NCBI GenBank assembly: GCA_937967405.1
Contig: CALCJV010000022.1
Coordinates: 42,670-106,669, forward strand
Direction: 5' to 3'
From: an uncultured Chloroflexales bacterium
GTDB lineage: Bacteria > Chloroflexota > Chloroflexia > Chloroflexales > Chloroflexaceae
DNA: 64,000 nt
The translations under genes and the position numbers were made by a program. The notes below the pieces were generated by a model. The model worked only from the letters and a program-made list of their open reading frames with translations, did not search any database and was not told the origin of the DNA. Below are positions 49,596 to 61,657 of this stretch, piece by piece (position 1 is the first letter of the stretch; each line of letters opens with the position of its first letter).

Positions 49596-51587
49596 ATGTC
49601 ACCGAAGCTCAAATTCCCCCTGAGCGGTGTCCTGCTACTGGTGTTGCTGGTGCCAATTCTAGCAGCCTGCGGCGGCGGTACGGCGAGTGCACCCGTTGTC
49701 GAAACTGTCGTGGTGACGGCCGAACCGGAAGTGGTGGTGGTCACGGCTACGCCCAGCGAAGCTACAGACAGCACCACCACCCCACCCACCGATGAACCGG
49801 TTGGGCAGTGGCGCACCCCCCACCCCATTCTCAGCAAGCTCGAAGTGCGCCAAGCAATTGCCCACTGTACGGATCGGCGGGCCCTGATCGAGTCGGTCTA
49901 CCCCTTCCTTGAAGACGACCAGAAGGATGCCCTGCTGATGAACACCTTCCTGCCGCAGGGTCACTGGGCCCTTGCCCCCGATGACAAGATCACGATCTAC
50001 GAATTTGATCCAGAAAAGGGCAAGGCCTTGCTCGAAGAAGCGGGCTGGAAGCAGGAAGAAGGTAGTAGTGTGCGGACAAACGAAGCCGGTGAGCCACTCA
50101 CCCTGAAATTCACCACTACCAATGCCGCCTTCCGCCAGACGTGGGCGGCCGTGCTCGAACAGCAACTGCTCGAAAACTGTGGCATCCAGATCATCCGCAC
50201 CCACGCGCCCGGCTCGTGGTGGTTTGGCAGCACCACTGGGCTACAACGGCGCGACTTCGAACTCGGCGCGTTCGCGTGGGTGGGGCAAGCCGATCCGGGC
50301 GGTACGACGCTCTACGCCTGCAACCAGATTCCGTTGCCCGACAACAACTGGGAAGGGCAGAACTATATGGGCTGGTGCAACGAAACCGCTAGCCGGGCCG
50401 TGATCGCTGCGAACAACACGCTTGAGCGCGAGAAGCGCATTGAGCAGTACCACATCCTTCAGCGCGAGTTCACTGCGGATATGGTCAGCCTGCCGCTGTT
50501 CAACCGCTTTGAGGCCGCTGCCGCCAGCAACGACCTCGTCAACTTCCGTCCCAATCCGACCACCGACTCGATTCTCGTGAATGTGGATGAGTGGGAGCTA
50601 GCCGATGGCGGCGATACCGTTGTGTTAGGCTTTACGCAGGAACCGGCTTCGCTGTGGCTGGTCGTCGAAGATGCTGCTGTCGCCAATTCCGCATCCGGCT
50701 TGCTTAAGGTGCGGGCAGTCACATCCTTCGATTACGATTACCAACCCGCTGCCCTCAAAGAGCTGCCCACCATCGAGAATGGCGGAACCGTGCTCACGCT
50801 CGTCGAAGTCTCGGCCGGCGATACCGTCTGGTCGGTAGATGGCGAAGCAGTTGAGCTGGCAGAGGGCGTAGAGGTGATCAATGCCGATGGCGAAATTGTC
50901 GCCTACGATGGCTCGCCGATCACGCTCAACCAACTCGCTGTGACATTTGAGTTCCCGCCCATGAAATGGGAGGACGGCGAGCCACTCAAAGCCGCCGATT
51001 ACGAACTGGCCTACAACATTGACTGCAACGAGGAGTCGGGTGCAATCTCGCTCACCGTCTGCAAGTCTATCGCGGATGTGGAGTTCCGCGACAATGGCTA
51101 CACGATCACCTACCTGCCCGGTGCCCAGTGGGCCGAATACTTCGCCTATACGCTAGGAACCTACAGCAACCTGTTCACCGTCGGAGCCTATCCCTCGCAT
51201 CAGGTACTCGCCGATGGGCGCAAGCTCGCCGACGTGCCGGCGAGCGAGTGGTCTACCTTGCCCGAAATAGCCGAGCGACCGCTCAGCTATGGGCCCTATC
51301 GCCTTGTTGAGTGGCAAAAGGGCCAGCGCATGGTCTTTGAAGCCAACCCCAACTACTACAAGGGCGAAGTAGCGATCAAGACGCTGATAATCGAGTTCTT
51401 CGATGATACCAACCAAGCCGTCGCGCAGCTCCTCACCGGCAATGTAGATGTGCTCGGCTCGGAGACGCTCGGCGCAGGGCCTGAACTGGAGACCGTCCTT
51501 GCAGCAGCTGAAGCAGGCCAAATCCAAGCCTTCCCGCTGGCCAGCCCAACGTGGGAGCATATGGATATGAACCTATTCATTCGTTAA
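49596..51587 (+). CDS. ABC transporter substrate-binding lipoprotein (peptide/Opp-Dpp, SBP family 5)
   Basis: Lipobox VLLLVLLVPILAACGGG; WRTPHPILSKLEVRQAIAHCTDRRALIESVYPF; RPLSYGPYRLVEWQKGQRMVFEANPNYYKGEVAIKTLIIEFFDD. Confidence 0.92.
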   Translation: MSPKLKFPLSGVLLLVLLVPILAACGGGTASAPVVETVVVTAEPEVVVVTATPSEATDSTTTPPTDEPVGQWRTPHPILSKLEVRQAIAHCTDRRALIESVYPFLEDDQKDALLMNTFLPQGHWALAPDDKITIYEFDPEKGKALLEEAGWKQEEGSSVRTNEAGEPLTLKFTTTNAAFRQTWAAVLEQQLLENCGIQIIRTHAPGSWWFGSTTGLQRRDFELGAFAWVGQADPGGTTLYACNQIPLPDNNWEGQNYMGWCNETASRAVIAANNTLEREKRIEQYHILQREFTADMVSLPLFNRFEAAAASNDLVNFRPNPTTDSILVNVDEWELADGGDTVVLGFTQEPASLWLVVEDAAVANSASGLLKVRAVTSFDYDYQPAALKELPTIENGGTVLTLVEVSAGDTVWSVDGEAVELAEGVEVINADGEIVAYDGSPITLNQLAVTFEFPPMKWEDGEPLKAADYELAYNIDCNEESGAISLTVCKSIADVEFRDNGYTITYLPGAQWAEYFAYTLGTYSNLFTVGAYPSHQVLADGRKLADVPASEWSTLPEIAERPLSYGPYRLVEWQKGQRMVFEANPNYYKGEVAIKTLIIEFFDDTNQAVAQLLTGNVDVLGSETLGAGPELETVLAAAEAGQIQAFPLASPTWEHMDMNLFIR

Positions 51588-51608
51588 GCCTATTGCAGCT
51601 ACCCAATA

Positions 51609-51639
51609 GGGTGGGAAGGCCCGCACAGTCTTCCCACCC
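51609..51639 (+). terminator. Intercistronic hairpin between substrate-binding and permease genes
   Basis: Perfect 10-bp stem GGGTGGGAAG/CTTCCCACCC with 11-nt loop. Confidence 0.6.
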
Positions 51640-51671
51640 CGCGCCTACGCGGCTGGAAATGGAATCCGCCC

Positions 51672-52880
51672 ATGACCAACTTTCTCATTCGTCGCCTGTT
51701 TCAGATGTTCATTGTCGTTGTGCTGGCCTCAATCGTGTCGTATGCCTTGCTCTATATTGCGCCCGGTGGGCCGCTGCTCGGCTTGCAGCAGCAGCAGCAG
51801 GGCGGAGCCAACCGCATCACCGAAGCCGATATCGCTCGGATCAAAGCCCGCTTCGAGCTTGACCTGTATATGCCCGTGCGCTTTACGCGCTGGTTTGTGG
51901 GCTTCCCCAAAGAGCCGATTAAAATCGGCGACCAAGTGTACTTCGCTGATCTGCAAGTTGGCTGCGCCACCACCCAAACGGTGCGTCTACGCTACCCCGA
52001 TGGGCGCGTCGAGTTCGCCGAAATCTGCGCTACGCCCGTCACCCTAGCAGACCTAGCGGGGCGGCGCAGCAGCAACGGCATCCTGTTTGGCGATTTCGGG
52101 CTGTCGCAGGTCATCCTGCGAGATCGTCCGATCAGCACCTTGATCTGGAGCCGCCTGCCCTACACCATCGCCCTCATGGGCATCTCCACCTTGATTACGC
52201 TGATGGTTGCCATCCCACTAGGGGTCTACTCGGCAGTGCGCCAGTATTCGCCCTTTGATACCGCGGCAACAACGGTATCGTTCATTGGCACATCGCTCCC
52301 GACCTTCTTCTTCGGCTTGATGCTCATCCTCGTATTTGCCGTGCTGGCCAAAAATGCAGGGCTACCCTATCTGCCGCCCGGTGGCGCAACCGCCAACCGT
52401 GACTACACGATCCCCTTCTTTGGGCTATTTGAGCTGACCGTCAAAGCGAGATCGTTCCTTGATATGGTGCTCCACTTCATTATGCCCTGCCTCGTGCTTA
52501 CCTTCGTGAGTGTTGCCTCGTGGAGCCGCTTTATCCGTTCGAGTATGCTCGAAGTGCTGCGCCAAGATTACGTCCGCACGGCCCGCGCCAAAGGCCTGCG
52601 GGAGCGACTAGTGATCCTAAAGCACGCCTTCCGCAACGCTCTGATCCCATTCATTACGCTCGTGGCCGGCATTCTGCCCGCCCTCGTCGCTGGTGCCGCC
52701 ATCACCGAAAGCGTATTCAACTGGCCCGGGTTGGGGCGGCTCCTCGTAGATGCCCTCAACCGCAGCGACTACACTGTCGCACTGGCGTTACTGTATGTCA
52801 CGCTCGTTCTCCAGCTCGTGGGCTACCTGATCTCGGATATTCTTTATACCGTTGCGGATCCCCGCATCCGGCTCTCGTAA
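51672..52880 (+). CDS. ABC transporter permease (DppB/OppB family)
   Basis: IRRLFQMFIVVVLASIVSYALLYIAPGGPL; SMLEVLRQDYVRTARAKGLRERLVILKHAFRNALIPFITLVAGILPALVAGAAITESVFNWPGLGRLLVDALNRSDYT. Confidence 0.95.
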   Translation: MTNFLIRRLFQMFIVVVLASIVSYALLYIAPGGPLLGLQQQQQGGANRITEADIARIKARFELDLYMPVRFTRWFVGFPKEPIKIGDQVYFADLQVGCATTQTVRLRYPDGRVEFAEICATPVTLADLAGRRSSNGILFGDFGLSQVILRDRPISTLIWSRLPYTIALMGISTLITLMVAIPLGVYSAVRQYSPFDTAATTVSFIGTSLPTFFFGLMLILVFAVLAKNAGLPYLPPGGATANRDYTIPFFGLFELTVKARSFLDMVLHFIMPCLVLTFVSVASWSRFIRSSMLEVLRQDYVRTARAKGLRERLVILKHAFRNALIPFITLVAGILPALVAGAAITESVFNWPGLGRLLVDALNRSDYTVALALLYVTLVLQLVGYLISDILYTVADPRIRLS

Positions 52881-52892
52881 GGAGGTAAACGC

Positions 52893-53894
52893 ATGGCCAC
52901 CACTCTTCCCTCCGCAAGCCTGCCGCTGGAAGAGACCACCATCCAAGCCGAGAGCCAATGGGCGACCGTGCTACGCCGCTTTATGCGCCACCGCATGGCG
53001 ATGATTAGCGCGGTGGTGCTGGTGGTAATCTTCATCGCCTCGTTCCTTGCCCCCTTCATCGCTCCCTTCGGGCGCGACTCGATTGACTTGGGCAACCGCT
53101 TCGTGCTGCCCTTTACGCCCAATTCCGCAACAGGCCAGATACACTGGCTCGGCACTGATCATCTGGGGCGCGATTACTTCACCCGTCTGCTCTATGCTGG
53201 GCGCATCTCGCTCACGGTTGCACTTGTATCTACCCTCTTATCCACCATCATCGGCTTAGTGCTAGGTGTGCTAGCGGGCTATTTCGGTGGCTGGGTAGAT
53301 ATGCTGATTACGCGCACGCTCGAATTTGTGGCAACCTTCCCGCTCTTCATCATCCTGCTCATTCTTGTCACCGTGCTGCTCGAAGACGCGAACCTGATCC
53401 CTATTCCGGGCTTCATCCTCAGTACCGTTATGTGGGTCACCGCTGTCACCCGCGAACGTGAGGCACAGGTGATTGTGCTGGTGACGGTTGTGATTGCACT
53501 CCTGTTCTGGACCGGCACAGCTCGGCTGATGCGAGGCATGGTGCTATCGGTGCGGGAGCAGCCCTACATTGAATCCTCCCGTGCACTGGGCGGCTCGCAC
53601 ATGCGCGTGATGACGCGCCACGTCTTTCCGAATGCCTTCCCGCCGATCATCGTCGATTTCACCCTCGGCCTCAATGGCATCCTCGTGCTCGAGTCGTCCT
53701 TGAGCTTTCTGGGCTTCGGTATCCAAGACCCGATCCCAACGTGGGGCAATATGCTCGCCTTTGCCCAAAGCTACATGTTCCAGCACCCATGGATGACCGT
53801 CGTGGCCGGCTTGCCGATCCTGTTTACCTCATTGGCCATCAACTACATGGGCGATGGGCTGCGCGACGCGCTCGACCCGCGCATGAAGCTGTAG
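52893..53894 (+). CDS. ABC transporter permease (DppC/OppC family)
   Basis: HWLGTDHLGRDYFTRLLYAGRISLTVAL; SRALGGSHMRVMTRHVFPNAFPPIIVDFTLGLNGILVLESSLSFLGFGIQDPIPTWGNML. Confidence 0.95.
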   Translation: MATTLPSASLPLEETTIQAESQWATVLRRFMRHRMAMISAVVLVVIFIASFLAPFIAPFGRDSIDLGNRFVLPFTPNSATGQIHWLGTDHLGRDYFTRLLYAGRISLTVALVSTLLSTIIGLVLGVLAGYFGGWVDMLITRTLEFVATFPLFIILLILVTVLLEDANLIPIPGFILSTVMWVTAVTREREAQVIVLVTVVIALLFWTGTARLMRGMVLSVREQPYIESSRALGGSHMRVMTRHVFPNAFPPIIVDFTLGLNGILVLESSLSFLGFGIQDPIPTWGNMLAFAQSYMFQHPWMTVVAGLPILFTSLAINYMGDGLRDALDPRMKL

Positions 53895-53906
53895 AAGGAT
53901 ACTGCG

Positions 53907-55019
53907 TTGATCAAACCTACCCCTCCCCCAAGCCTGACCCCCGCGCATCAACCGGAGCCTGCGCCCACCCCGCCCGCCCCGCCACGTGAGGTCTTCTTGC
54001 AGGTGCGTGGCTTAAAGACGCACTTCTTTACCGAACGTGGGGTGGTGCACGCCGTAGATGGGGTTGACCTAGAGCTACGACGCGGCGAAACGCTCGGGAT
54101 TGTCGGTGAGAGTGGCAGCGGCAAAAGTGTCACCTCCCTCTCGATTATGCGCCTGATCGAATCACCCGGCGAGATTGTCGCGGGTGAAATTTTGTTGGAT
54201 GGCGTAGACCTGCTCAAGCTGAATGAGGAGGAGATGCGTAGCATTCGCGGCAATCGGATTGCGATGGTTTTTCAGCAGCCCACCACCTACCTCAATCCGG
54301 TCTTCAAAGCGGGCGATCAGATTGCCGAGTCGCTCAAAATCCACCGCAACCTGAACGATAGCGAAGCCCACGAACAGGCGATCCGCCTGCTTGAGCAAGT
54401 GGGCTTGCCCGATCCGGCCCGCCGCGCCCGCCAATATCCGCACGAACTCTCCGGTGGGCAGTGCCAGCGTGTAATGATTGCCATGGCCTTGGCGTGCAAC
54501 CCAGAGCTACTGATTGCCGACGAGCCAACCACCGCCCTCGATGTGACGATCCAAGCCCAGATTCTCGACTTGATGCGGGCATTGCGAACAGGCATAGATA
54601 CTTCAATCATCTTGATAACCCACGATATGGGCGTGATCGCCGAAATGGCCGACCGCGTCGCGGTGATGTATGCGGGCCAGATCGTCGAGTACGCCGATGT
54701 CTACAGCCTGTTTGAGTCACCCAAACACCCCTATACCCAAGGCTTGCTCGGCTCGATGCCGCAGCTAGGCGAGGTGCGCGAGAAGCTACAGGTGATTCGA
54801 GGTGTCGTGCCCAGCCTGATTAACCCACCCACCGGCTGCCGCTTTGCGGATCGCTGCGACTACCGCTTCGAGCGGTGCGAGCAGCCCCCGCCGCTGATCC
54901 AGCTTAGTGATCAGCGCGAGGTACGCTGCTGGCTCTACGCCGATCAGCACACTCTGCCCGCCACAGCTCCGGACTCCACCGCCGCCAGTGTCGCCCTAGA
55001 AACAGGAGCCAGCGCATGA
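53907..55019 (+). CDS. ABC transporter ATP-binding protein (DppD/OppD family)
   Basis: [64 protein letters not shown]. Confidence 0.95.
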
Positions 55020-56092
55020 GCGATGTTGAACAGATACCCACGAGGGTGGCCCCTACCCAGCCCGCAGCTGGGCCTATGGCTGCTACGCAGAGCAAACCGC
55101 CAGACCCGATTCTTGATGTCCGCAACCTGAAGAAACACTTCCCCGTCAAGGGTGGGCTGTTGCGGCGTACCGTTGCCCACGTTAAAGCCGTAGATGGGGT
55201 CAGCTTTACCATGCAGCGCGGCGAAACGCTCGGCTTGGTGGGCGAAAGCGGCTGTGGCAAAACCACTGTCGGGCGCACGATTCTGCGCCTCGAAAAAGCG
55301 ACCGCAGGCGAGGTCTGGTTTGAGGGGCGCGATATTCTCAAGCTCTCTATCTGGCATCTTAAGGCTCTGCGACGCGACATGCAGATTATCTTTCAAGACC
55401 CGTACTCTTCGCTCGATCCACGTATCCCCGTTGGTGAGAGCATCGCCGAAGGGCTGCTTATTCACGGCATCGGCACTAAGCAAGAGCGCGAGGAAAAAGT
55501 CCGCGAGGCCCTGCTGCGGGTCGGCTTGCACCCCTCCAGTATGCAACGCTTCCCGCACCAGTTTTCGGGCGGGCAACGCCAGCGCATCGGCATTGCGCGG
55601 GCCCTTGTAATGGAACCGAAGCTGATTATCGCCGATGAGCCAGTCTCCGCTCTGGACGTGAGCGTGCAGTCGCAGGTGCTGAACCTGATGCGCGAATTGC
55701 AGCAGGAGTTCGGGCTAACGTACCTGTTTATCGCCCACAATTTGAGCGTGGTGGAACACATCAGTGATCGCGTGGCGGTGATGTATCTGGGCAAAATTGT
55801 TGAGCTAGCGGATCGCAAGCAGCTGTTCAGTGTCTCGCGCCACCCCTACTCAAAGGCATTGATCTCGGCGATTCCAGTTGCCAACCCCAAAATCCGCCGC
55901 CAGCGCATCATCCTTGAAGGCGATGTGCCTAGCCCGCTCAATCCACCTTCGGGCTGCCGCTTCCACCCACGCTGCTGGATGGCACAGGAGATTTGTCGCA
56001 CCGTCGAGCCGCCGCTTGAAGAGAAGGTGCCGGGGCACTGGGCCGCGTGCCACTTCGCCAACGATGTTGCCGCGAGCCTGCCGCACAAGTAG
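55016..56092 (+). CDS. ABC transporter ATP-binding protein (DppF/OppF family)
   Basis: [69 protein letters not shown] overlap with the previous gene. Confidence 0.95.
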
Positions 56093-57390: not shown

Positions 57391-58500
57391 ATGCAGACAC
57401 CGACTCATCCTTGGCGCACAGTGCTTATGGTGTTCGTGCTGATTGTGGGCACACTCGCTAGTGCGGGCTGTGCGGGTCTCGCCTCACCACTAGCAGGTTC
57501 TGGGGGCAATGCGCCGCTAGCAGCAGGCAGTGCCGCGAACGCACCGGACGTGCCCGACGTACCGGACGTGAATGATCCGCGCCTCACGATTACCAAAGCT
57601 GATCTGGTCAATCCAACTACGCTCAGCATTGTCGCGCAGGCCCAAGCTATTCCCGATGGCACAGAACTGCGCCTCGATCTGCTCGCCGCCGATCAGCCTA
57701 CGGCATGGCTCGCCGAAGATGCAACCACCGTGCACGTGGCCGATGGGCGCATCAACGTGCGAGCCACACGCCGCGCTGATGCCGCCGCCCTCGATTGCAG
57801 CCAGCCGCTTGCGATACGCTTGAGCGGACAAGTCAACGGTACAACCCTTGAGCCAACCTACGCCCTCACGATCCCCGCGATCTACCAAGCGGAGGTATGC
57901 CTGCCGCCGCAAGCGATCCGCATCGCGGTTGGCAATGGCGGCAATGTGCGCGACGCGCCATCAGGTGCAGCCCCAATCATCGGGCAGATCACCTTGGGGC
58001 AAGAGGTGGCCGTGCTAGGGCGATTGGCAGATGGGGACTGGTATCTGCTCCGCACCAGCGATGGAAGAGAAGGCTGGGCGGCCCACGCCGCACTTAGCCC
58101 GCCCGAAGCACAGGTAGCGGAGCTACCCGTGTTAGCTCCCCGCAACCGCACGGCTACCAGCCGTTCCACACCACCGCCCCCCGCACCGGCTGCGCCAGCC
58201 CCGATCCCCGCCGAGATTGACGGCATACCTACGATTGCGGCCGCTGAGCTACCCCCCGAAGCGCGGGAGACCATGCGCCTGATCGCCCGCGGGGGGCCCT
58301 TTCCCTACAGCAAAGATGGCACAATCTTCCAGAATCGGGAACGCCTGCTCCCCCTCCGGCCCGCAGGCTACTACCGCGAATACACCGTTCCCACACCCGG
58401 CGCATCGAACCGCGGGGCCCGCCGCATCGTTAGTGGCAATTCCGGCGAACTGTACTACACCGCCGATCACTACGCCAGTTTTCGGCGCATTGTCGAGTGA
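57391..58500 (+). CDS. Exported (putative lipoprotein) SH3b domain protein with C-terminal RNase Sa/barnase-family guanyl-specific ribonuclease domain
   Basis: N-term VFVLIVGTLASAGC; SH3-like NVRDAPSGAAPIIGQITLGQEVAVLGRLADGDWYLLRTSDGREGWA; C-term LPPEARETMRLIARGGPFPYSKDGTIFQNRERLLPLRPAGYYREYTVPTPGASNRGARRIVSGNSGELYYTADHYASF closely follows RNase Sa as recalled. Confidence 0.9.
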   Translation: MQTPTHPWRTVLMVFVLIVGTLASAGCAGLASPLAGSGGNAPLAAGSAANAPDVPDVPDVNDPRLTITKADLVNPTTLSIVAQAQAIPDGTELRLDLLAADQPTAWLAEDATTVHVADGRINVRATRRADAAALDCSQPLAIRLSGQVNGTTLEPTYALTIPAIYQAEVCLPPQAIRIAVGNGGNVRDAPSGAAPIIGQITLGQEVAVLGRLADGDWYLLRTSDGREGWAAHAALSPPEAQVAELPVLAPRNRTATSRSTPPPPAPAAPAPIPAEIDGIPTIAAAELPPEARETMRLIARGGPFPYSKDGTIFQNRERLLPLRPAGYYREYTVPTPGASNRGARRIVSGNSGELYYTADHYASFRRIVE

Positions 58501-58515
58501 GTAAAGGATAGGGAC

Positions 58516-59061
58516 GTGCAAGAACATACCGATGAATCCATGAACAATCTCGAAGAACTTTTCTATAGCGGTTACGAATCAGGGGTATACGTCCCTAGAT
58601 ATACCCTCAACTTGGACGAGCTACGCGCACAGGCACTGCCTGAGCATGTGTTTGTTGCCCATGTGGATGGGGTTGAGTTGCACACCAAAGCCGATTTTTT
58701 GGCGGCAATGGCCCGCGAATTCCAGTTTCCCGATTATTTTGGCATGAACTGGGATGCGCTCGAAGAATGCCTCACCGATCTAGAATGGCTCCCAGCATCC
58801 GGCTATGTGCTGCTCTATGACAACTGCGATCAGTTTGGGGAGCGTGACGAAGACGCTTGGCGGACTTCACTCACCATCTTGCATGCTGCCGCTGATTATT
58901 GGGAAACAGCCGGACGGCGTTTCTTCGTGCTGCTGCGCTACACTCGTTTCGGCGATACAGACGAGCTAGAAGCGGAGCAGTTGCAAGCCGGGCCCGAAGA
59001 ACAAGAACACAAACAGGCTACACAGCAGCAGCAACAGCACAAACAAGACGACACTGGCTAG
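58516..59061 (+). CDS. Barstar family protein (putative inhibitor of the upstream RNase)
   Basis: HVFVAHVDGVELHTKADFLAAMAREFQFPDYFGMNWDALEECLTDLEWLPASGYVLLYDNCDQF matches the barstar FPxYxGxNxDAL core. Start could be Met9 (58540). Confidence 0.9.
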   Translation: MQEHTDESMNNLEELFYSGYESGVYVPRYTLNLDELRAQALPEHVFVAHVDGVELHTKADFLAAMAREFQFPDYFGMNWDALEECLTDLEWLPASGYVLLYDNCDQFGERDEDAWRTSLTILHAAADYWETAGRRFFVLLRYTRFGDTDELEAEQLQAGPEEQEHKQATQQQQQHKQDDTG

Positions 59062-60144
59062 CACCAGACAGGTGCTGTTGGCAGCGGGCGCGGTGGCATC
59101 GCTGCTGGCGGGGACAGGCGCACCAAACGGCGCATACGGAGCAGGCGGTGGCGGCGATACCAGCCGTGCGGATGCTGTGCTGTTTGGGGCCTCAAGCGCA
59201 GGTACGGGAGGTGTGGCCATGCGGATCGTTTCCGGTGCAGGTGCGGTATCTGTGAGCGGCACACGTGCGGGCGGCGGATCCAGCGCGGCTGGGCTAGTGG
59301 CAGGGCTAGCTACGGCTTCGCGTTGCTCGGTTGGCCCAAGCAGGCGCACGATCTGCAATGCCCGCAGCAACTCGCTGGGGCTGTTGTAGCGCGTGTATGG
59401 GGCCATGGACAGCGCACGTTCTAGCACGCGGTCGTGCAGGGGCGACAGCAACGGATTGAGGCTGCTCGGCGGATTGAGCTGCATGCCTGCCTCACGCTGG
59501 GCCGCAGAGAGCGGGAGCCAGCCCGTAAGCAGGTAGTACAGCACCCCCCCAAGCGCATACATATCGCTGGCACGGGTCGGGGTAGTATCGGGCTGGGCTA
59601 GCTCTGGAGCGCGATAGGGCGTATCGGTAGCAGCAAGCGGGCGGATCAGGGCGAAGGGCGCAAGGCGCGGCTGCTGATCAGCCGCAATCCAGATGTCCGA
59701 GCTGTGCACCTCGCCCACAAGCAGTGCAGTCGGCTGGCTGTGTAGCTGCCCGAACAGGTGCAGCAGGGCTTCGATGCGCGGCATGCCGACATCAAGCTCG
59801 CCGCCCAAGCCGGGCAACAGCTCCCGCGCCGTCGTATGCATATCGCTGCCACCGAGATCACCCACCACCATATACACCGTCTGCCCCGCACTGAAGGTAT
59901 CGAGCAGCGGGAGCAGCGCAGGCGATTGCACTGCTTGCAGCGCGGCGGCAATCTGGAGCGTGTGCTGCTGGGTTACTTGGTCAGGTTGCTCGCAGGCCGC
60001 GATCAAGAGCGGCGTTTCAGTGCTATCCGGCTGTGCTTGATCGGCCACCCGATAGGCACGGTAGATCAGACAGCCGGGCTGGTCTTCCAGCACATAGCCG
60101 ATGCGGTAGCGATCCGCAAGGATGTTGTTCAGGTCAAGTGTCAC
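58966..60144 (-). CDS. Serine/threonine kinase-like pseudokinase with single C-terminal TM helix
   Basis: DRYRIGYVLEDQPGCLIYRAY start; YRAPELAQPDTTPTRASDMYALGGVLYYLLTGWLPL retained; HRDxxxxN replaced by VHSSDIWI and DFG by APF; C-term STCLVLASVVLFVLLLLLCSLFVFLFFGPG. Confidence 0.82.
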   Translation of the reverse strand: MTLDLNNILADRYRIGYVLEDQPGCLIYRAYRVADQAQPDSTETPLLIAACEQPDQVTQQHTLQIAAALQAVQSPALLPLLDTFSAGQTVYMVVGDLGGSDMHTTARELLPGLGGELDVGMPRIEALLHLFGQLHSQPTALLVGEVHSSDIWIAADQQPRLAPFALIRPLAATDTPYRAPELAQPDTTPTRASDMYALGGVLYYLLTGWLPLSAAQREAGMQLNPPSSLNPLLSPLHDRVLERALSMAPYTRYNSPSELLRALQIVRLLGPTEQREAVASPATSPAALDPPPARVPLTDTAPAPETIRMATPPVPALEAPNSTASARLVSPPPPAPYAPFGAPVPASSDATAPAANSTCLVLASVVLFVLLLLLCSLFVFLFFGPGLQLLRF

Positions 60145-60148
60145 AGCA

Positions 60149-61537
60149 TTAGCTCAACGCAGGCGCACAGACTGCACCAGCATGCTGCACGTGCTGCACA
60201 TAGCGTTCGACCCGATCTACGCAGCGTAAGCCACTCCGCACCGCGCCTTCAATCGAGGCGAGGAACTCCTGCTGGGTGTAATCGCCTGCGAGGAAGAAGT
60301 TGGGCACAGGCGTGGCCTGATCGGGGCGATACTGATCTACACCGGGTCGTGCTTGGTAGACCGAATTGGGGATCCGCACAATGGTGTACTTCTTGAGCTT
60401 GGCTTCGGCCGCAATCGGGTGCAGGCGCACAAAATCAGCCATCACGTGCTGGACAATCGCTTCATCATCCAGCTTGATCAGCGTATCGGCGGGCGCAACC
60501 ACAAACTGCACGATGCTTGGCCCGCCTGTGCTGTAATCAGGAGCGACATTAGCCATATCCGCATACACGCTAATATCGGTGTGCGAGCTAAACAGCAGGT
60601 GGTTCACGCCCGTCACTTGGCGGTCAAAGAAGAACTGCAAGGTAATCACTGGGCGACCCTTGAGGTGGCGCAGGTCAGCGAAGTAGTCCATCTCGCGCAG
60701 GGCCTCAGGCAAGACCTTCCGCAGGCTATGCACGGGCATGGCCGAGATGTACACATCGCCGCGCACGATGCTGCCATCATCGAGCACAAAACCATCCACG
60801 TTGTTGGAGATCGGCTCATAGATTATATCCACCACTTTGCGGTTCAGCTCCACTCTACCGCCGCGTGCCTCTAGCTTGGCGATCAGTGGCTCCCAGATGC
60901 GCGTGTGCGGCGAGCCTTTGACGAGGGCCATTTTGGATGCGTCGGTCTCTTGGGCAAAACGCATCAGCGCAGTGAGCATTAGCTTAGCCGACACATCTTC
61001 AGTGCGGGCAAAGTTCAGCGCAAGGGCCATCGTGTCCATCACATCGCGCAATGCCCGCTCACCCATGCCGTGCCGCAAATGCCACGAGGCGTAGCTTTCG
61101 TAATCTTGCCGATCAATGTAGGCTTGGTCACCGAAGATGGGCTGGAGCAGGCCCACAGCCACGCGCAGCTTATCTTTGAGCGGAAGTAGCTTGCTGATTG
61201 CCACACCGGCCAGCCCATTGAGCGGCGCGGGCAAGCCGGGCACAAATTTGATTGGAGCTAACCCGTGTTCGGGCGAGGCGAAAATCATCTCAGCCGTGCG
61301 CCAGTCAAACGTATCGTTAAGGTCATTTTGATCGAGAAACTTGAGCAGATTATGGTAGGCTCCAAAAAAGACGTGTAAGCCACTTTCAACCCAGTCGCCA
61401 TCGGCATCTTTCCACGCCGACACCTTGCCGCCGGGAACGTGCCGCTTCTCCAATACGATGATTTCATGCCCTTGCCGCGCCAGTTGGGTAGCGGCAACCA
61501 TTCCGGCGGGGCCTGCTCCTGCAATGATAATACGCAT
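60149..61537 (-). CDS. FAD-dependent amine oxidase-family enzyme, plant/cyanobacterial-type phytoene desaturase (CrtP/PDS)-like
   Basis: MRIIIAGAGPAGMVAATQLARQGHEIIVLEKRHVPGGKVSAWKDADGDWVESGLHVFFGAYHNLLKFL; ALNFARTEDVSAKLMLTALMRFAQETDASKMALVKGSPHTRIWEPL; FFLAGDYTQQEFLASIEGAVRSGLRC. Confidence 0.82.
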   Translation of the reverse strand: MRIIIAGAGPAGMVAATQLARQGHEIIVLEKRHVPGGKVSAWKDADGDWVESGLHVFFGAYHNLLKFLDQNDLNDTFDWRTAEMIFASPEHGLAPIKFVPGLPAPLNGLAGVAISKLLPLKDKLRVAVGLLQPIFGDQAYIDRQDYESYASWHLRHGMGERALRDVMDTMALALNFARTEDVSAKLMLTALMRFAQETDASKMALVKGSPHTRIWEPLIAKLEARGGRVELNRKVVDIIYEPISNNVDGFVLDDGSIVRGDVYISAMPVHSLRKVLPEALREMDYFADLRHLKGRPVITLQFFFDRQVTGVNHLLFSSHTDISVYADMANVAPDYSTGGPSIVQFVVAPADTLIKLDDEAIVQHVMADFVRLHPIAAEAKLKKYTIVRIPNSVYQARPGVDQYRPDQATPVPNFFLAGDYTQQEFLASIEGAVRSGLRCVDRVERYVQHVQHAGAVCAPALS

Positions 61538-61657
61538 CTCGGTTATTCTTTCCAGACTAAGGCGAATTGTTTCAATCTGTTCTTGCCTCACGCACTCTCT
61601 TGCTTTATAGCACGATTACGCATGCCGCGCAAGCCCAGCATCCCTGCCATCCACCCC

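What the first reader, a model, noticed from the sequence alone, without database searches (positions are those of the whole stretch)
57391..59061. Exported SH3b-RNase Sa/barnase protein directly followed by a barstar gene
The C-terminus of 57391..58500 keeps the RNase Sa-type landmarks: GPFPYSxDGxxFQNRExxLP, YREYT (catalytic Glu), RGxRRI (Arg), DHYASF (catalytic His). It therefore reads as an active guanyl-specific RNase rather than a remnant. It carries a signal/lipobox-like N-terminus and an SH3-like domain, so it may be anchored at the cell wall or released. The next ORF, 15 nt downstream, is a barstar-family protein (FPDYFGMNWDALEECL). Barnase-barstar pairing is well known, but a surface-anchored SH3b-barnase with linked barstar, beside alr (cell wall) and a pseudokinase gene, looks like a possible contact-dependent or secreted toxin-immunity module.
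Basis: partly seen in the sequence, partly recalled or inferred. Interest (0 to 1): 0.78.

Follow-up and report, generated by a model that had tools for sequence, protein, structure and literature searches.

The report
Exported barnase-type RNase with barstar
A Chloroflexota bacterium carries a classic barnase-barstar gene pair, an exported RNA-cutting enzyme (here probably tethered to the cell surface) followed by the gene for its protective inhibitor; such pairs are common in bacteria, and only the extra SH3-type front end is unusual.

Summary
ORF 57391-58500 encodes a signal/lipobox-like N-terminus, a predicted beta-sandwich, an SH3_3 domain (48.7 bits) and a complete RNase Sa-type domain (PF00545, 81 bits; about 60% identical to Streptomyces RNase Sa/Sa3; catalytic Glu330, Arg345 and His360 kept). 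The next gene, 15 nt on, is a barstar (PF01337, 99.7 bits). The RNase domain is under strong purifying selection (dN/dS 0.09 against a congener). The pairing is not chance: all 18 RNase-positive Chloroflexota genomes found, and 76 of 80 related loci from GTDB genomes, have a barstar gene directly downstream. Exported RNase plus linked intracellular barstar is the ordinary barnase-barstar arrangement. "Simple barnase-barstar gene pairs", and SH3 domains anchoring secreted toxins, were described in 2012 (PMC3482391). The Ig-like/SH3 front end is confined to this genus in what I scanned; elsewhere these RNases carry short leaders, several with lipoboxes or membrane anchors. Neighbouring alr and pseudokinase are incidental: the kinase belongs to an old pair with phytoene desaturase. 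Contact-dependent delivery has no support. Most likely: an envelope-tethered guanyl-RNase for scavenging or competition, with barstar for self-protection. New member of a known kind; low interest.

The parts
57391..58500 (+). Exported SH3b-RNase Sa protein, 369 aa (putative lipoprotein)
57391..57471 (+). Signal sequence with lipobox-like ASAGC (Cys27)
   Evidence: sequence; motif conserved in G022; helix 8-22 in a low-confidence model; no signal-peptide predictor run
57571..57912 (+). Ig-like beta-sandwich region, also present in a 563-aa SH3 protein of the congener
   Evidence: 46% identity over query residues 27-146; strands in a low-confidence model
57937..58095 (+). Bacterial SH3 domain (SH3_3, PF08239), residues 183-235
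58225..58497 (+). RNase Sa/barnase catalytic domain (Pfam residues 280-367; E330, R341, R345, H360)
58516..59061 (+). Barstar-family inhibitor (GTG 58516 preferred because of the AAAGGA upstream; ATG 58540 also possible); Gln-rich C-terminal tail

Best explanation
The two genes form a barnase-barstar bicistron. The first product is Sec-exported and probably held at the cell envelope by a lipid anchor, with an Ig-like and an SH3 domain as stalk or cell-wall contact. Its C-terminal RNase Sa-type domain cleaves RNA after G outside the cytoplasm. The second product has no export signal, stays in the cytoplasm and blocks the active site of any RNase that folds before export or re-enters, so the producer is protected. 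Shown here by computation: domains, catalytic residues, linkage, purifying selection, folds. Inferred: RNase activity, inhibition, lipidation, location. What the enzyme is used for (RNA/phosphate scavenging or harming neighbours) is not resolved and is treated under the rivals.
For: Domains. Catalytic residues aligned to RNase Sa/Sa3 and invariant in 90/90 homologues; in barstar the residues aligned to Asn33 and Asp35 are invariant and the Asp39 position is acidic (Asp or Glu) in 90/90. dN/dS 0.094 for the RNase domain against 0.45-0.46 in N-terminus and linker. Barstar downstream in 18/18 RNase-positive Chloroflexota genomes and in 76/80 loci of other genomes, median 16 nt between domain ends. 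In the phylum samples barstar is in 14 of 14 RNase-positive genomes and in 10 of the other 386. Distance matrices of RNase and barstar agree (Mantel r 0.65; best of 2000 permutations 0.11). AlphaFold2 of the read-through pair gives mean pLDDT 87; the RNase part matches RNase Sa2 (TM 0.92, rmsd 0.6) and the barstar part matches barstar (TM about 0.85). Secreted RNase with linked intracellular inhibitor is known (PMC5021464).
Against: No activity or binding data. The lipobox has Ser at -3. The barstar hot-spot Asp39 is Glu, and Trp38 is Glu, here. The Mantel agreement partly reflects shared species history.
Confidence: 0.85

Rival explanations
1. On purpose (compatible with the anatomy above): a toxin-immunity module. 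The surface-held RNase enters neighbouring cells, by contact or after release, and kills those that lack the barstar.
For: Barstar is the standard immunity protein of barnase-type toxins, and SH3 domains at N-termini of secreted toxins are thought to anchor them to the producer's wall (PMC3482391). A barnase-type domain with barstar also sits behind a long Pro/Gly-rich protein in G267.
Against: No translocation, pore, RHS, CdiA, WXG or PAAR part in the protein, only SH3 and RNase domains; one copy per genome, no cassettes; low polymorphism within the genus (RNase domain 92% identical, dN/dS 0.09), unlike fast-diversifying toxin tips.
Confidence: 0.35
2. On purpose (compatible with the anatomy above): nutrient scavenging. 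The enzyme degrades extracellular RNA for phosphate and nucleosides, next to an oligopeptide-uptake operon.
For: The peptide ABC transporter genes 49596-56092, alr, RNase and barstar lie in a row on one strand; balifase and binase of Bacillus are induced by phosphate starvation (PMC5021464).
Against: The opp-alr-RNase order is seen only in this genus; no Pho-box or phosphate genes were tested.
Confidence: 0.5
3. Intracellular toxin-antitoxin system.
For: RNase toxin with adjacent inhibitor.
Against: The RNase has an export signal and an SH3 domain; most homologues have signal or anchor leaders; the order is toxin first; the barstar protein has no DNA-binding domain.
Confidence: 0.04
4. Inactive remnant.
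For: None found.
Against: All catalytic residues kept, purifying selection.
Confidence: 0.02

Closest known systems
Streptomyces RNase Sa / Sa2 / Sa3 (guanyl-specific ribonucleases, PF00545)
   Same: About 60% sequence identity of the catalytic domain with Sa and Sa3, same active-site residues, same predicted fold, exported.
   Different: RNase Sa is a free secreted enzyme; here the domain sits at the end of a putative lipoprotein with Ig-like and SH3 regions.
Barnase-barstar of Bacillus; balifase-YrdF operon of B. licheniformis (PMC5021464)
   Same: Exported RNase, intracellular barstar-family inhibitor; in balifase both genes are in one operon.
   Different: Barnase proper is only weakly similar (E about 1e-3); no anchor or SH3 domain in the Bacillus enzymes (own knowledge).
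Simple barnase-barstar gene pairs and SH3-anchored T2SS toxins (Zhang et al. 2012, PMC3482391)
   Same: Toxin gene then barstar gene; barnase and Imm-barstar listed in Chloroflexota; SH3 at the N-terminus proposed to anchor the toxin to the producer's wall.
   Different: This exact Ig-SH3-RNase protein was not named in the passages I read.

Membership tests
RNase N1/T1, RNase Sa type (PF00545) | Domain match above curated cut-off | tested here: met
   81.1 bits against 24
RNase N1/T1, RNase Sa type (PF00545) | Catalytic Glu, Arg and His | tested here: met
   E330, R345, H360 align with E54, R69, H85
RNase N1/T1, RNase Sa type (PF00545) | Fold of RNase Sa | tested here: met
   Foldseek to 1pyl, TM 0.92, rmsd 0.6; model pLDDT 88-95 in the domain
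RNase N1/T1, RNase Sa type (PF00545) | G-specific RNase activity | not testable with these tools
   needs an enzyme assay
Barstar (PF01337) | Domain match and fold | tested here: met
   99.7 bits against 23.4; TM about 0.85 to barstar
Barstar (PF01337) | Acidic contact residues Asp35, Asp39 | tested here: met
   Asp72 and Glu76 (conservative change at Asp39); acidic in 90/90
Barnase-barstar gene pair | Adjacent genes, conserved linkage | tested here: met
   18/18 and 76/80
Barnase-barstar gene pair | Physical inhibition of the RNase by this barstar | tested here: inconclusive
   Tethered model pTM 0.60, interface not inspected
Bacterial lipoprotein | Signal sequence and lipobox Cys | tested here: inconclusive
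   ASAGC by eye, conserved in G022; Ser at -3; no predictor run
Contact-dependent inhibition / polymorphic toxin | Secretion-system-specific N-terminal domain or repeats | tested here: not met
   Only SH3-type and RNase domains in Pfam; nothing above cut-off in NCBIfam

The most novel reading that the evidence does not exclude
A lineage of Chloroflexota has turned the freely secreted RNase Sa into a wall-bound surface weapon or defence by fusing it to an Ig-SH3 stalk taken from a resident protein family, so that RNA is cut only at the cell surface (for example in neighbours it touches, or in incoming RNA).
Probability: 0.12. Interest if true: 0.45.

Novelty: new member of a known kind. Interest (0 to 1): 0.2.

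Why it matters
It gives a clean, conserved example of exported RNase plus barstar in Chloroflexota and shows how near-universal the linkage is across phyla. The SH3-fused version could test whether such RNases act at the cell surface or free in the medium. It does not change the picture of barnase-barstar systems.

Tried and rejected
Paralogues of the Ig-like region in the own genome: none convincing (best E 0.26), but a 563-aa SH3 protein in the congener shares it. alr and kinase as functional partners: rejected. PADLOC: no defence model fits the RNase or barstar (the kinase hits are generic kinase similarity). Promoter/terminator scan: nothing above chance. The first fold alignment A2 was discarded because MAFFT laid barstar rows over RNase columns; it was replaced by A3 with in-frame read-through pairs. 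The full-length single-sequence fold was poor (pLDDT 48). Literature searches for an SH3-barnase or Chloroflexota barstar study led only to PMC3482391. Laying the whole genome in the script box was not available.

Full report
What is there. ORF 57391-58500 (+) encodes 369 aa and ORF 58516-59061 (+) 181 aa, 15 nt apart and in the same frame. Pfam finds an SH3_3 domain (residues 183-235) and a Ribonuclease domain (280-367) in the first and a Barstar domain in the second, all well above cut-off. The RNase domain is closest among solved structures to Streptomyces RNase Sa3 and Sa (E 2e-32 and 3e-31), and only remotely similar to Bacillus barnase (E about 1e-3), so 'RNase Sa type' is the right name. 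The residues aligned with the catalytic Glu54, Arg69 and His85 of RNase Sa are Glu330, Arg345 and His360; all are invariant in 90 aligned homologues. The second protein aligns to barstar: the Asp35 equivalent (Asp72) is kept, the Asp39 equivalent is Glu76, and Trp38 is replaced by Glu75.

Is it a functioning gene pair? Only one other genome of the same genus was available (G022). It has the same two genes with the same gap. Between the two species the RNase domain has dN/dS 0.094, the SH3 and Ig-like regions 0.21, the barstar about 0.29, and the N-terminus and Pro-rich linker 0.45-0.46. The enzyme domain is the most constrained part of the protein, which argues against a remnant.

Is the pairing more than chance? 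Among 400 genomes of the phylum, 14 have PF00545 and 24 have PF01337; all 14 RNase genomes are among the 24. In all 18 RNase-positive Chloroflexota genomes found by the family, order and phylum searches, a barstar gene lies on the same strand directly downstream, often overlapping the RNase stop by 4 nt. In the 80 best related loci of a GTDB-wide scan (Actinobacteria, Betaproteobacteria, cyanobacteria, Chloroflexota and others), 76 have a barstar directly downstream; of the other four, L153 has only 89 nt of downstream DNA held. RNase and barstar distance matrices correlate (r 0.65, permutation maximum 0.11), though common species history contributes.

What is unusual here. Leaders of the homologues are mostly signal peptides, lipoprotein signals or membrane anchors with short linkers (by eye). 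Pfam scans of the eight RNase frames with the longest leaders and of 21 members including the window found SH3_3 together with the RNase only in the window protein and, as the second of two matching members, evidently its congener. The Ig-like/SH3 front end resembles a 563-aa protein elsewhere in the congener with the same Ig-like region and three SH3 domains but no RNase, so the fusion probably arose locally by joining an RNase Sa unit to a resident SH3 protein (inference). SH3 domains at the N-termini of secreted toxins, proposed to hold the toxin on the producer's wall, are described in Zhang et al. [quoted passage not shown]

Structure. Because the two genes are in frame, they were folded as one read-through chain (TGA as Trp, a computational tether only) with 24 homologous rows. 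Mean pLDDT is 87. The RNase part matches RNase Sa2 (TM 0.92, rmsd 0.6) and the barstar part matches barstar (TM about 0.85, rmsd 2.2) in the PDB. pTM is 0.60, so the interface is not established and I make no claim from it.

Neighbours. The pseudokinase-like gene (58966-60144, -) lies next to phytoene desaturase in most relatives of the family whose loci were held (21 of 28), although only one other genus of the family has the RNase at all. The alr gene is beside the pair in this genus only. An oligopeptide ABC transporter cluster (49596-56092), alr, RNase and barstar lie in a row on the + strand, which is compatible with a nutrient-uptake role but is not conserved with the pair elsewhere.

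Mechanism. Best supported: export of the RNase, probably with lipid anchoring and SH3-mediated wall contact; cytoplasmic barstar for self-protection. The domain, linkage and selection steps are shown by computation; activity, inhibition and location are inferred from RNase Sa, barnase and balifase (PMC5021464). Purpose (scavenging or competition) is open. Contact-dependent delivery has no positive evidence.

Verdict. A real, well-conserved, ordinary barnase-barstar pair with a genus-level SH3 fusion. New member of a known kind.

Noticed in passing
58966-60144 (-) with 60149-61591 (-): A short protein-kinase-like gene (only a fragment of the Pkinase profile matches) is kept next to a plant-type phytoene desaturase gene in most family members whose loci were held; the function of this pair is unexplained.
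   Followed up: partly
58966-59061: The 3' ends of the barstar and kinase-like genes overlap by 96 nt in convergent orientation, also in the congener; the overlap encodes the Gln-rich barstar tail and the hydrophobic C-terminus of the kinase-like protein.
   Followed up: partly
L042:2353-3819 (G267): A barnase-type domain at the end of a 489-aa Pro/Gly-rich protein with an N-terminal TAGNQAVNRLIQR motif, followed by barstar; from memory this motif resembles cargo of extracellular contractile injection systems.
   Followed up: no
L040 (G401) and L041 (G397): The barstar frame runs on without a stop into a glyoxalase/epimerase-like sequence (by eye), suggesting a barstar fusion protein in two genera of one family.
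   Followed up: no
L167:4263-5954 (G022): A 563-aa protein with the same Ig-like region plus three SH3_3 domains and no RNase; possible source of the front end of the window protein.
   Followed up: partly
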